Source: Synergistaceae bacterium (GTDB lineage Bacteria > Synergistota > Synergistia > Synergistales > Aminobacteriaceae). From it: a DNA stretch of 33,749 nucleotides. Location of the stretch: the NCBI GenBank assembly GCA_017448685.1, contig JAFSKY010000017.1:1-33749 (forward strand). The letters run 5' to 3'. The position numbers were made by a program, and so were the translations under genes. The notes beneath the pieces are model-generated. The model did no database searches. It was not told where the DNA came from and worked only from the letters and a program-made list of their open reading frames with translations. Positions within the stretch are counted from its first letter, which is position 1. Every line of letters starts with the position of its first letter. Shown here piece after piece: positions 4,817 to 31,916 of the stretch.

Positions 4817-5745
4817 ATGAGGAATATTACCATGATTGCGGCCAATGAGCACGCCACATCAAAAACCTTCCACGCCCTTACAATGTCCAAGATTGCCGGG
4901 TCATTAGCATTCTCATTCAGGAACGGACGAGCCTCAAATTTTCCGCCGTAAAACGCTCCTCCTCCCAACCTCACGCCTAACACACCAGCAAATGCGCTTT
5001 CACCGTGTGCGCTGTTAGGGCTGTCATGATTGAGCCTGCACGACATGAATACCCTGCAAGCCTCCCGGAATTTTCCACCCAGCAAAGTCCCGGCCATGAT
5101 GATTATGATTCCTCCGAGCCTCGCGGGAATGAAGCCGAGTATGTCATCTAGCCTCGCTGAAGCCGTCCCGTAACGCCCGTATGACCTGTAACCGAGCATT
5201 GAATCGAGAGTATTTGCCGCCCTGAATACCCACACAGCAACGCACATTCCGCAATCATAATTCAGCACATGGCCTAATGCCGCGAAGAATATTACTGAGA
5301 TTGCGCCGTCAATGGAATTTTCGCCGATTGTCTCAATAACCGCCTTCGTTATTCCGGCCTCGTCAAGATTAGCCGTATCACGCCCCACAACGAACGACAA
5401 AGCTCTTCTTGCGCCGTTAATGTCGTGATTCATGAGCGCGAAAAATACGGGAGCTGTCTCATCCTTGAGGTCTCTCCACGCAAGAGCCGAGTACACTATA
5501 TACGCCTGAACAATGACATTCCCGCCTGAAACATGAATCACAGCACAAACAACAAGCCCCGCCGTGAATATGGTCATCACACACACAGCGAGGCCGCGTA
5601 AGAATGAGTCATTGCCCGTGAAGAGTATTTTGTGCCAGAACGTTATCACATGGCCGATGAATCTAACGGGATGGGGGAAATTCTGAGGGTCTCCAAATGC
5701 CGAGTCAAATATTACAGCTAGGCACAATATCAGCGCGAACTTCAA
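4804..5745 (-). CDS. cbiB: Adenosylcobinamide-phosphate synthase CbiB
   Basis: Integral membrane enzyme that attaches aminopropanol (or its phosphate, the CobD product) to adenosylcobyric acid. The 313 aa length fits the family. The N-terminus carries the family pattern FGDPQNFPHPVRFIGH after a first hydrophobic segment, and further conserved blocks are TKAVIETIGENSIDGAISV, a MLGYRSYGRYGTASARLDD stretch and several hydrophobic helices. The gene starts at TTG two bases after the stop of the SH3-like gene; no strong ribosome site is present, so translation is probably coupled. It directly precedes cobD, whose product supplies its substrate. Confidence 0.92.
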   Translation of the reverse strand: MKFALILCLAVIFDSAFGDPQNFPHPVRFIGHVITFWHKILFTGNDSFLRGLAVCVMTIFTAGLVVCAVIHVSGGNVIVQAYIVYSALAWRDLKDETAPVFFALMNHDINGARRALSFVVGRDTANLDEAGITKAVIETIGENSIDGAISVIFFAALGHVLNYDCGMCVAVWVFRAANTLDSMLGYRSYGRYGTASARLDDILGFIPARLGGIIIIMAGTLLGGKFREACRVFMSCRLNHDSPNSAHGESAFAGVLGVRLGGGAFYGGKFEARPFLNENANDPAILDIVRAWKVFDVACSLAAIMVIFLIWTI

Positions 5746-5747
5746 CG

Positions 5748-6494
5748 CTAATATTCCGGCTCTCCAGTTACACCCCTGTAAAGCTCAACGCGGTAAACAG
5801 TGCCATCCCTATCACCATCTAAGCGGCGTTCAAGGACTGAGAGAGTCATATTCCTGTCAGCAAGCTCAAATGAAAGTATGCTTATCTCTGGGGATTCATA
5901 TGGTGTTTCACGCATTGTTGGAGTACCGAGCTTTGAACGTACTTCAGGTTGCGACCAGTCTATGAGGTCAGCTCCGAGAAATTCGCGGCATATTCTGTAA
6001 TCGCTTGTGGTGAAGAATACATCCCTGACTCCATTCCGGCCTTCAATCACTTTGAATGATGCATCACCTGTTTTGCCGTCAGTCTGATACACCGTAACGC
6101 CGTCTTCAGTGTAGGAAGTCCATTTGTCCGGGTTATTCATGGCTTTTCTGCGGGCTTTGGCGTAATTCTTCGTGAGGTTGGCAACGAGCTTACTTTTTCC
6201 GCCCATTTTGAGACGTATTCCGTTTTGTGGCAGCCATCCTTCACGGCCATTGACTTTGACTTTGTACCACAAGTAATTGTCATCATCACGGACTGCGCTG
6301 GGTACGCTGATCCATTTTTGCGGCATGTCGATTTCCCTTGAGCGTGAAGAGGAGTCTGCTTTGTCGTAAAGGCGCAATGTTGATTCGAGTGGGAATGCCC
6401 ATTGACCTTTTGCGGGGGGATTGGGGATTGCGAATGATGATGAGGCGAATATTGCGATGAGAATCACCGCGAGGATTGATGCTTTTCGAGTCAT
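5748..6494 (-). CDS. Secreted SH3-like domain protein, function unknown
   Basis: 248 aa protein with a clear N-terminal signal peptide (basic MTRK, then a hydrophobic stretch, cleavage probably after SSSFA near residue 22). Residues about 35-95 look like a bacterial SH3-type domain (alternating short strands, WISVPSAV, LWYKVKVNGREGWLP). The C-terminal part has no family I recognise. Such domains often bind peptidoglycan or a protein partner in the envelope, but no catalytic motif is visible, so that role is inference. An AGGAAG ribosome site precedes the ATG. It lies 41 bases after the restriction endonuclease gene in the same direction and 2 bases before cbiB. Confidence 0.7.
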   Translation of the reverse strand: MTRKASILAVILIAIFASSSFAIPNPPAKGQWAFPLESTLRLYDKADSSSRSREIDMPQKWISVPSAVRDDDNYLWYKVKVNGREGWLPQNGIRLKMGGKSKLVANLTKNYAKARRKAMNNPDKWTSYTEDGVTVYQTDGKTGDASFKVIEGRNGVRDVFFTTSDYRICREFLGADLIDWSQPEVRSKLGTPTMRETPYESPEISILSFELADRNMTLSVLERRLDGDRDGTVYRVELYRGVTGEPEY

Positions 6495-30069: not shown

Positions 30070-30540
30070 ATGATTCTTGTGATATTGTGGCTGGTTCAAG
30101 ATTTGCTGACTGTTTTCACGGGCGGAGGAATGCAGATTCCCGGGCTTTTCATGCTTGGAGTAGCGTACAGGCTTCTCATAGATGACGGGAGCGGAGATGA
30201 AAGCCTTTGGGCAATATGGACAGCTTTTGCCGGGGGAGTTTTATGGGATATACGCTGGATAGGTATACCGGGATTCTTCACACTGGGATATGTTGTTGTG
30301 GTGCTGATTGTGATTCAGGTGTGGGGGATAATTCCTCCGCAAGGCCGCGTTTCAGGTACGGGGCTTATCGTGTTTGCACTCCTTGAAGCCTCGCAGATTA
30401 TTCCTCCTGCATTGCCTATTATTGTGCTTGGTGGCAATACTAGTTGGGGAGGATTCTTCATGCAGCAGGCGTATTCCCTTCCCGCTATACTGTTCACGAT
30501 GTATGTTTATTCCCGTAAGGTGAGAAGCTCAAGCGTTTAA
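30070..30540 (+). CDS. mreD: Rod shape-determining protein MreD-like
   Basis: 156 aa membrane protein with about five hydrophobic helices, a polar IDDGSGDES loop, and an FAGGVLWDIRWIGIPGFFTLGY segment matching the MreD F-x-x-G-L-x-x-D pattern. MreD sequences are poorly conserved, so the call relies partly on position directly after mreC (1-base gap) and before a terminator. The last codons (VRSSSV) and the following terminator are duplicated, diverged, about 190 bases downstream. Confidence 0.85.
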   Translation: MILVILWLVQDLLTVFTGGGMQIPGLFMLGVAYRLLIDDGSGDESLWAIWTAFAGGVLWDIRWIGIPGFFTLGYVVVVLIVIQVWGIIPPQGRVSGTGLIVFALLEASQIIPPALPIIVLGGNTSWGGFFMQQAYSLPAILFTMYVYSRKVRSSSV

Positions 30541-30596
30541 TGTAAGTTGATGGTGTGAATGATTCCCCCTGAATGTTAGGGGGATATTTTTTTGCG
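30520..30596 (+). repeat. Direct repeat copy 1: mreD 3' end plus terminator
   Basis: Begins GTGAGAAGCTCAAGCGTTTA, covering the last mreD codons, and ends in the T run and GCG after the terminator. It is similar over its whole length of about 77 bases to 30710-30787, which begins GTGAAAAGCTCAAGCGTTTA and ends in a T run and GCG. Confidence 0.75.
30562..30594 (+). terminator. Intrinsic terminator of the tadA to mreD unit
   Basis: Stem CCCCCT/AGGGGG (extended by flanking AT pairs) with a 7-base loop, then ATATTTTTTT. It lies 21 bases after the mreD stop and is the only strong terminator seen in the rightward series from tadA. Confidence 0.88.
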
Positions 30597-30709
30597 TCAT
30601 TGAAGCCCCACAAGCCTCAGAAAAATTCCCGGCCATGTCTCAATTCACCTTCCAATCTCACGAAGCCCAATACCCCCGCAATTGTATTTCCTGCGTTCAA
30701 GTCCTTAAT

Positions 30710-30787
30710 GTGAAAAGCTCAAGCGTTTAAGATATGTTGCTGTGGTGAGAATGTTTCCCACATTGTGTGCGGAGGATTTTTTTTGCG
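30710..30787 (+). repeat. Direct repeat copy 2: diverged duplicate of mreD tail and terminator
   Basis: Starts GTGAAAAGCTCAAGCGTTTA and would encode VKSSSV then stop, compared with VRSSSV then stop in mreD. The hairpin part has decayed (TTTCCCACATTGTGTGCGGA) but the T8 run and following GCG remain. Upstream of the shared codons the similarity to mreD is lost, so this is a remnant rather than a second mreD. Confidence 0.7.
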
Positions 30788-30800
30788 CGGGAATATGGCA

Positions 30801-30837
30801 CAAAGAAAAGCCCCTCCCGTTTTGCCGGAAGGAGCTT
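30801..30837 (-). terminator. Probable terminator of the DWIW gene pair
   Basis: On the minus strand AAGCTCCTTCCGG pairs imperfectly with CGGGAGGGGCTT around a short A-rich loop, followed by TTCTTTG. It lies about 50 bases beyond the stop of the second secreted-protein gene. Several mismatches make it weaker than the other terminators here. Confidence 0.6.
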
Positions 30838-30889
30838 GATTTTGCTTTGAGTATTGGCGGTGAAGATTGAGCGCGTTTTCAGTCCGTAT

Positions 30890-31189
30890 TTACCAAATCC
30901 AATCCACAATAATTGCAAAGATTAAGTCCCTAATTCCCTTTGGGCGTTCTCCGAAACAATAAGTTCTTGCACTGTAGAGCGTTTTAATGTTGCGGACATC
31001 GTACGAAACAGCCTGACCAACATCGCACGAAACAGCAAAGCCGATGGGAAAGCCGATGGGCATCTCACCGGGTGCTAAGCAACAGAACCCTGGCCACGCT
31101 GAAGCAGAATTACCCGCAAAGCACGCCCCTGAAGCACACAGCACCAATGCCAGAATCACAGCCGTTATTCTCTTCACGGCAATCACCAT
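30890..31189 (-). CDS. Small secreted Cys-containing protein ending in DWIW, unknown
   Basis: 99 aa, not matched to any family I know. A signal peptide (MVIAVKRITAVILALVLCAS, cleavage near ACFA at residue 25) precedes a short mature part of about 74 aa with five or so Cys (CC pair, SCDV, TYCF). Two internal tandem repeats are encoded: PIGF twice in a row, and AVSCDV/AVSYDV eight residues apart. The last residues IVDWIW echo the LIDWIW end of the neighbouring protein. ATG 31189 overlaps the upstream stop by 7 bases (ATGGTGA), no ribosome site is visible, so it is probably coupled; an earlier in-frame start at 31222 would lie inside the other gene. Confidence 0.62.
   Translation of the reverse strand: MVIAVKRITAVILALVLCASGACFAGNSASAWPGFCCLAPGEMPIGFPIGFAVSCDVGQAVSYDVRNIKTLYSARTYCFGERPKGIRDLIFAIIVDWIW
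30996..31060 (-). repeat. Short tandem repeats inside the second DWIW gene
   Basis: Two repeats lie side by side. ACATCGTACGAAACAGC (30996-31012) recurs with one mismatch at 31020-31036, period 24. AAAGCCGATGGG is perfectly doubled at 31037-31048 and 31049-31060, period 12. Both periods are multiples of 3, so copy changes would alter length without breaking the frame. Confidence 0.85.
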
Positions 31190-31722
31190 ATCCAGTCTAT
31201 GAGGCAGTGAACACCATAGCACACTCCAGCAGCAGCAACACCCACAACCGCAGCCCCTACAACAGCAGGAGCCGCCGCAATACCCAGCGCACTCGCTACA
31301 GGAGTCCCGATTGCCGCAAGAGTCGCATTCGTTGCCGCAACACCTGAAAGAGTCGCTATAGCCGTCCCAGTTTTTGCCGTCATTCCTGCCGCGCCAGCAA
31401 GATATACTGCCGTTGAAGTCGCGCCCGTTGTTATCGCTGTATCAGCCGCCGCCTTGATGGGTGCTTTCACTAAATCTTTTCCGGCCTCTTTAGCGACATC
31501 AATCGCAATGTCAAGACGCTCATCGTTATTCTTGGCGTTGTAGAAATCTGAGCCAGTCTTGTACACCTGATATACTGTATTGACAGTTTTCCCGACTTCA
31601 CCGAATTTTTCTGCCTGTCTCTTCACCTCCTCATTGCCTGACCATCCCGCAAACGCAGGCTGAACCGCCCCAATCACCATAACGCTGACCAACAACACCG
31701 CGATGAACCTTGAATGTTTCAT
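31183..31722 (-). CDS. Secreted Gly/Ala-rich protein ending in DWIW, unknown
   Basis: 179 aa. A clear signal peptide (MKHSRFIAVLLVSVMVIGAV, cleavage near QPAFA at residue 25), a polar, charged region (about 26-90, with KEAGKDLVKAPIKAAAD), then a long Ala/Gly/Thr-rich hydrophobic stretch (about 95-168) resembling a glycine-zipper membrane-inserting segment, and a C-terminal VCYGVHCLIDWIW with two Cys. No family is recognised. The shape (export signal, soluble part, zipper-like hydrophobic tail) is compatible with a membrane-active or surface-assembling protein, which is inference. An AGAAGGA ribosome site lies 8 bases before the ATG. First gene of a two-gene leftward unit. Confidence 0.72.
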   Translation of the reverse strand: MKHSRFIAVLLVSVMVIGAVQPAFAGWSGNEEVKRQAEKFGEVGKTVNTVYQVYKTGSDFYNAKNNDERLDIAIDVAKEAGKDLVKAPIKAAADTAITTGATSTAVYLAGAAGMTAKTGTAIATLSGVAATNATLAAIGTPVASALGIAAAPAVVGAAVVGVAAAGVCYGVHCLIDWIW

Positions 31723-31768
31723 GATATATTCCTTCTTTCTTGGGAATGAGGATCTTGAGGATAAATCA

Positions 31769-31797
31769 ATTATAGAATCAATCCCCCCCCCTAAAGA
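31769..31797 (-). promoter_or_regulatory. Promoter of the DWIW pair with a G9 tract in the spacer
   Basis: On the minus strand a consensus TATAAT (31774 to 31769) lies about 47 bases before the ATG at 31722. The 17 bases upstream of it consist of nine consecutive G (31791 to 31783) and ATTGATTC; the -35 position then falls on TCTTTA, a poor match. A homopolymer between a weak -35 and a good -10 means that gain or loss of a G would change the spacing and so the promoter strength. Confidence 0.65.
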
Positions 31798-31880
31798 GCA
31801 TAAATACTCACTTCATGATACGTGATTATATGTATGTGTGAAAAGTTCGTCGCAAGTGGAAGCCTTCCTGTACTCTTTGG

Positions 31881-31886
31881 TAAAAT
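31881..31886 (+). promoter_or_regulatory. Candidate -10 box upstream of mrdA
   Basis: TAAAAT lies 30 bases before the mrdA ATG. No good -35 box is present at 16-18 bases, so this is tentative. Confidence 0.3.
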
Positions 31887-31916
31887 TCATCCCATCAAAA
31901 ATTATGCAGGTGAAAC

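What the first reader, a model, noticed from the sequence alone, without database searches (positions are those of the whole stretch)
30890..31722. Adjacent, coupled small secreted proteins share a C-terminal (I/V)DWIW end
Two overlapping genes encode exported proteins with different bodies (a 179 aa Gly/Ala-rich zipper-like protein and a 99 aa Cys-containing protein), yet both end DWIW directly before the stop. The codons differ at synonymous positions (GAC TGG ATA TGG TGA against GAT TGG ATT TGG TAA), which suggests the tetrapeptide is kept by selection on the protein or is old, not a fresh DNA copy. I know no family with this end. A sorting, assembly or partner-recognition tag, or a two-component membrane-active system, are possibilities; all are inference.
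Basis: partly seen in the sequence, partly recalled or inferred. Interest (0 to 1): 0.6.

Follow-up and report, generated by a model that had tools for sequence, protein, structure and literature searches.

The report
Switchable exported proteins sharing WIW tail
Two neighbouring genes in an uncultured Fretibacterium-type bacterium encode exported proteins that share a conserved tryptophan-rich end; they belong to a mobile, probably on/off-switching family confined to this genus, some members of which carry bacterial nuclease-toxin domains, so they look like membrane-active or weapon-like surface proteins of unknown exact function.

Summary
Two adjacent genes encode proteins with signal-peptide-like N-termini (179 aa; 99 or 95 aa) that both end DWIW. 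In 43 genomes of the genus, DWIW-stop occurs six times and [IVM]-x-W-[IV]-W-stop nine times. Every hit is a small exported protein of this kind, and the reversed-pattern controls gave none. Both genes show purifying selection (dN/dS 0.12 and 0.33), so the second is translated. The start/stop overlap is not conserved.

The first gene belongs to a genus-restricted family with a shared leader and hydrophobic Gly/Ala-rich bodies, often in tandem arrays. Relatives end in Colicin-DNase/WHH or NS_2 nuclease domains. The pair is a mobile cassette: next to flhB in a relative, but inserted between mreD and mrdA here, a junction that is contiguous in relatives. Its promoter has nine Gs just upstream of TATAAT. 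Many tract promoters (TTGACA, 19-21 nt containing poly-C/G/T, TATAAT) precede family members and other mostly exported genes, which suggests phase variation.

Best guess: a phase-variable, membrane-active exported protein related to nuclease toxins, with WIW as a membrane-interface end. The tail's function and any two-component action are unproven. Gene 1 also occurs without gene 2, and no immunity gene is adjacent.

The parts
31183..31722 (-). Gene 1: exported 179-aa protein, signal-peptide-like leader MKHSRFIAVLLVSVMVIGAVQPAFA, small-residue-rich hydrophobic C-terminal half, tail LIDWIW
   Evidence: dN/dS 0.12 vs G030; PDC-M09A-like segment aa 78-165
30890..31189 (-). Gene 2: exported Cys-containing protein ending IVDWIW (99 aa from ATG 31189; the start homologous to G030 is GTG at 31177, 95 aa)
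   Evidence: dN/dS 0.33; last 11 codons identical in G030
31186..31200 (-). Codons for the IDWIW tail of gene 1
30893..30907 (-). Codons for the VDWIW tail of gene 2
31769..31774 (-). TATAAT -10 box of gene 1
31783..31791 (-). Homopolymer of nine Gs (gene strand) just upstream of the -10: candidate phase-variation tract
30808..30837 (-). Intrinsic terminator ending the cassette; conserved after gene 2 in G030
31834..31847 (-). AACTTTTCACACAT, also found directly after flhB in G030, G009 (variant) and G000: upstream edge of the cassette and a hint that it came from the flhB site
30541..31916 (.). 1.38-kb insertion between mreD and mrdA, which lie 0-10 bp apart in G030, G028 and G034 (and contiguous in G009)
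30513..30787 (+). Duplicated mreD 3' end: 30513-30596 and 30703-30787, 77% identical

Best explanation
The two genes form a mobile cassette belonging to a genus-restricted set of small Sec-exported proteins. Gene 1 carries a leader shared across the family and a small-residue-rich hydrophobic region. The family's expression is probably switched by slippage of homopolymer tracts in promoters. The [IV][DK]W[IV]W end caps the last helix: the carboxylate and acidic or basic residue face water and the two Trp lie at the membrane interface. The most likely role is membrane-active antagonism or surface defence: the protein is exported, inserts in or permeabilises a membrane, and in sister proteins the same kind of N-terminal part carries a nuclease. 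Shown: the conserved tail, selection on both genes, mobility of the cassette, the tract at the promoter, and nuclease-bearing relatives. Inferred: export, switching, membrane insertion, antagonism, and the role of the tail.
For: Tail confined to this set of exported proteins, 9 of 9 hits, control 0. Selection on both genes. Family leader in about 28 strong hits. Leader relatives fused to Endonuclea_NS_2 (E 5e-26) and Colicin-DNase/WHH (E 1e-13 and 3e-10; 2e-11 and 5e-10). P0001 segment matches the PDC-M09A membrane family. Final hydrophobic segment in gene 1 and FTDN types, KD19 1.75-2.5. Different insertion sites. Tract promoters: 10 of 19 strong promoters in 399 kb carry a tract, 9 of them directly before leader-type genes; genus-wide exact matches with runs of 8 or more precede mostly exported or surface-related genes. 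Precedents: two-protein glycine-zipper bacteriocin Cdz (PMC5380434) and glycine-zipper-dependent entry of the DNase effector Tde1 (PMC10240207).
Against: No adjacent immunity gene, ABC exporter or delivery apparatus was seen at any tail-bearing locus. Gene 2 and the KWIW protein have no TM-scoring segment near the tail. GxxxG content is low. Structure models are uninformative (pLDDT 40-42). The nuclease relatives are other subtypes and none ends in WIW. No tract-length variation within one strain was observed. The window promoter lacks a good -35 box.
Confidence: 0.4

Rival explanations
1. Phase-variable surface protein (antigen, phage-receptor mask or adhesin-like coat) without toxic function; the WIW end anchors it in the outer or inner membrane.
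For: Tract promoters also drive other exported proteins and a glycosyltransferase, the usual surface regulon of phase variation; no immunity genes; divergent bodies with conserved ends.
Against: Leader-sharing sister proteins carry colicin-type DNase domains; the P0001 core resembles a candidate defence membrane protein.
Confidence: 0.28
2. The [IV][DK]W[IV]W end is a C-terminal sorting or assembly signal read by a dedicated or general factor (for example an aromatic-ended outer-membrane signal: W at -1, W at -3, hydrophobic at -5).
For: Strict position at the extreme C-terminus in all nine proteins and presence on otherwise different bodies.
Against: Only a minority of leader-family proteins bear it; bodies are predicted helical rather than beta-barrel (low-confidence models); no partner gene co-occurs with it.
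Confidence: 0.2
3. The shared end of genes 1 and 2 is only ancestry or recombination: gene 2 acquired or kept the end of a tail-bearing gene and the tail has no common function.
For: Gene 1 and FTDN types may be homologous throughout (about 40% identity); gene 2 tail DNA is unusually conserved, last 11 codons identical despite dS about 1.
Against: Codons differ between the two genes in both species and across nine proteins while residues stay; bodies diverged greatly but the ends did not.
Confidence: 0.1
4. Gene 2 is not a real protein-coding gene.
For: Start codon differs between species and no strong ribosome site is visible.
Against: Frame, leader, Cys and tail kept in G030 with dN/dS 0.33 over 93 aligned codons despite in-frame length changes; shared terminator downstream.
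Confidence: 0.04

Closest known systems
Cdz contact-dependent glycine-zipper bacteriocin (CdzC/CdzD, Caulobacter; PMC5380434)
   Same: Two adjacent genes for small exported hydrophobic proteins; horizontally moving; sets of one to three
   Different: Cdz uses type I secretion and has CdzI immunity; here Sec-type leaders, no exporter or immunity gene adjacent, low GxxxG content, and a WIW end
Tde1-type effectors: glycine zipper plus DNase (PMC10240207)
   Same: Leader-family relatives combine a small-residue hydrophobic region with a C-terminal DNase
   Different: Tde1 is a T6SS cargo; the window proteins have no nuclease domain and have signal peptides
PDC-M09A (PADLOC candidate phage-defence membrane protein)
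   Same: P0001 aa 78-165 align with its central membrane segment, E 8.7e-7
   Different: PDC-M09A-type proteins here are about 330-370 aa without the leader or WIW tail (L008, L031)
Class IIb two-peptide bacteriocins (general knowledge)
   Same: Two adjacent small membrane-active peptides, Trp at the ends
   Different: Size, leader type, no immunity gene, diderm host; no Pfam bacteriocin match for P0001 or P0002
Homopolymer phase-variable promoters such as Neisseria porA (general knowledge)
   Same: Homopolymer between -35 and -10 boxes, off-optimal spacer lengths of 19-21
   Different: Found here across a Synergistota genus; switching not measured

Membership tests
Leader-sharing exported family of this genus (defined here) | Leader M[LK]KxS[KR]xxAxLxVxVMxFxxVxPAFA | tested here: met
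   Gene 1 E 8.2e-17 to profile A1, although it is one of the 16 rows; gene 2 not among strong hits
Leader-sharing exported family of this genus (defined here) | C-terminal [IVM]xW[IV]W end in the tail-bearing subset | tested here: met
   9 of 9 genus hits, both window genes
Cdz / class IIb two-peptide bacteriocin | Dedicated ABC/type I exporter nearby | tested here: not met
   Neighbours are mreBCD, mrdA; flhB, glyS or leuC in relatives
Cdz / class IIb two-peptide bacteriocin | Adjacent immunity gene | tested here: not met
   None in window, G030 or G009 loci
Cdz / class IIb two-peptide bacteriocin | Both components always present | tested here: not met
   Gene 1 without gene 2 in G009
Cdz / class IIb two-peptide bacteriocin | Repeated GxxxG motifs | tested here: not met
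   0-3 per protein
Polymorphic nuclease toxin | C-terminal toxin domain | tested here: not met
   No domain in P0001/P0002; present only in other leader-family members
Phase-variable promoter | Homopolymer between -35 and -10 | tested here: met
   G9 immediately upstream of TATAAT in window and G030; T11-T13 in FTDN types; the window -35 is poor
Phase-variable promoter | Tract length varies within a strain and changes expression | not testable with these tools
   Needs reads or culture
PDC-M09A | Full-length match to the family | tested here: not met
   Only aa 78-165 match, profile 133-222 of 330

The most novel reading that the evidence does not exclude
[IV][DK]W[IV]W-COOH is a previously undescribed C-terminal signal of a new class of phase-variable exported membrane-active proteins in Synergistota, in which one leader-plus-hydrophobic chassis is combined with interchangeable ends (WIW, nucleases, other tails) and moves between genomic sites as a cassette.
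Probability: 0.25. Interest if true: 0.75.

Novelty: new variant of a known kind. Interest (0 to 1): 0.52.

Why it matters
Little is known about competition or surface variation in Fretibacterium and other Synergistota. The data point to a testable, lineage-specific set of exported, mobile and probably phase-variable proteins, some with colicin-type DNase domains, and give a short diagnostic C-terminal motif for finding tail-bearing members. If the tail works as a membrane or recognition signal it would be a new C-terminal motif.

Tried and rejected
Conserved start-stop overlap: rejected, not kept in G030. Gene 2 untranslated: rejected by dN/dS and tail conservation. Tail as a repeated DNA element: the 33-nt gene 2 tail occurs only at the two orthologous genes. 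Phage or plasmid origin: no match for P0001 in either collection. Structure models of both proteins were too poor to use, so no fold search was run. Obligate two-component system: not supported, gene 1 alone in G009. Wider spread: an alignment search of 188 phylum genomes finds full-length tail-bearing members only in this genus. NCBIfam, Pfam: no meaningful match for either protein. No paper in the held library mentions Fretibacterium together with phase variation.

Full report
What is there. On the minus strand, gene 1 (31183-31722, 179 aa) and gene 2 (30890-31189, 99 aa) both start with what looks like a signal peptide and both end DWIW. No signal-peptide predictor was available, so export is read from the sequence: basic start, hydrophobic stretch, AFA or CFA cleavage-like end.

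Is the tail more than chance. Across 43 genomes of the same genus, the DNA for DWIW-stop was found six times, every time at the end of a small exported protein of this kind, and the reversed pattern was never found. The looser pattern for [IVM]-x-W-[IV]-W-stop gave nine hits, nine of nine in such proteins, control zero. They fall into four body types: gene 1 type (window, G030, G009), gene 2 type (window, G030), a 112-aa type starting FTDNT after the leader (G034, G028, G009), and a 94-aa protein in G029 ending KWIW. Codons vary while residues stay, so selection acts on the protein. A search of 188 genomes of the phylum with an alignment of the tail-bearing proteins found full-length matches only in this genus. 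Two matching contigs are named uncultured Fretibacterium.

Both genes are real. Against G030, gene 1 has dN/dS 0.12 with dS about 1, gene 2 0.33 with dS 1.1. Gene 2 diverged greatly in its body, with in-frame gaps, but keeps leader and tail. Its last 11 codons are identical even at synonymous sites, so some DNA-level constraint or recent exchange there cannot be excluded.

The family. A profile of the leader finds about 28 strong matches in the genus. The proteins share the leader and have mostly Gly/Ala-rich hydrophobic bodies, and several lie in tandem arrays of two or three with other exported small proteins that have their own conserved ends (SPIVY, GPAD). Three leader-family loci have C-terminal toxin-type nucleases: Endonuclea_NS_2 in G030 (E 5e-26), Colicin-DNase and WHH in G040 and G035 (the G035 frame is interrupted by masked bases). 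No immunity gene is visible beside them, so an extracellular nuclease role is also possible. The middle of P0001 matches PDC-M09A, a candidate phage-defence membrane protein (E 8.7e-7).

Mobility. In G030, G028 and G034 mreD and mrdA lie 0-10 bp apart, and in G009 mrdA also follows directly. In the window 1.38 kb is inserted between them and carries the cassette in antisense. In G030 the same pair, and in G009 gene 1 alone, sits just after flhB; the window genome has flhB without it. The cassette from upstream region to terminator is 76-86% identical between the two sites, and its upstream edge AACTTTTCACACAT is the sequence that follows flhB, including in the window genome's own empty flhB site. 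That suggests the cassette moved from an flhB site. The match is short and the mechanism unknown. The mreD 3' end is duplicated at 77% identity in the insert.

Switching. Directly upstream of TATAAT, gene 1 has nine Gs; G030 has nine, G009 an interrupted run. FTDN-type genes have TTGACA, 19-21 nt with T11-T13, TATAAT. Other leader-family genes have poly-C or poly-G there. In 399 kb of fetched loci, 10 of 19 strong promoters carry a tract, nine of them directly before leader-type genes; these loci were fetched because of the family, so the share is not genome-wide. Genus-wide, TTGACA/poly-S/TATAAT hits with runs of eight or more precede exported proteins, a lipoprotein-like protein, a glycosyltransferase and others. 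This is the known layout of promoter-spacer phase variation, but no length variation within one strain was seen.

How it may work. I favour an exported membrane-active protein whose final helix ends at the membrane interface with two Trp. Gene 1 and FTDN types have a clear hydrophobic segment before the tail; gene 2 and the KWIW protein do not, so the tail may instead be an amphipathic end or a recognition signal. Cdz (PMC5380434) and Tde1 (PMC10240207) show that small-residue-rich membrane segments can kill or carry a DNase across a membrane. The window proteins fail several defining tests of Cdz or class IIb bacteriocins: exporter, immunity gene, obligate pair and repeated GxxxG. So they are not filed there.

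Limits. All genomes are one per species, several are fragmented MAGs, and the window lies on one contig of a 249-contig assembly. Models were too poor to interpret. Function is inference.

Noticed in passing
Genus-wide; for example L181, L182, L189, L195, L200, L204, L205: Promoters with TTGACA, a spacer holding a poly-C or poly-G run of 8-15, and TATAAT recur across the genus ahead of mostly exported or surface-related genes, suggesting a phase-variable regulon.
   Followed up: partly
L091:4411-5436; L096:4803-5786; L099 about 5004-6000: Leader-family proteins ending in Endonuclea_NS_2 or Colicin-DNase/WHH domains, with no adjacent immunity gene.
   Followed up: partly
L094:2927-3968, L101:4497-5466, L093:4454-5830, L109:4214-5227: Tandem arrays of two or three small exported proteins, several with conserved ends of their own (SPIVY, GPAD); the GPAD type weakly matches Gly-zipper families.
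   Followed up: partly
L031:3746-4744, L008:1126-2235, L174:4020-5009: 330-370-aa membrane proteins; the first two match PADLOC PDC-M09A, and the third looks alike by eye. They share the SGAAATNATLA motif seen in P0001.
   Followed up: no
L178:1480-1840 (G028 after flhB): A 48-nt piece of the flhB 3' end is repeated downstream at 94% identity, similar to the mreD 3' duplication in the window; possibly a trace of cassette insertion.
   Followed up: no
window 30996-31036: Two near-identical 17-nt direct repeats (ACATCGYACGAAACAGC, spacing 24) inside gene 2, absent from the G030 version.
   Followed up: no
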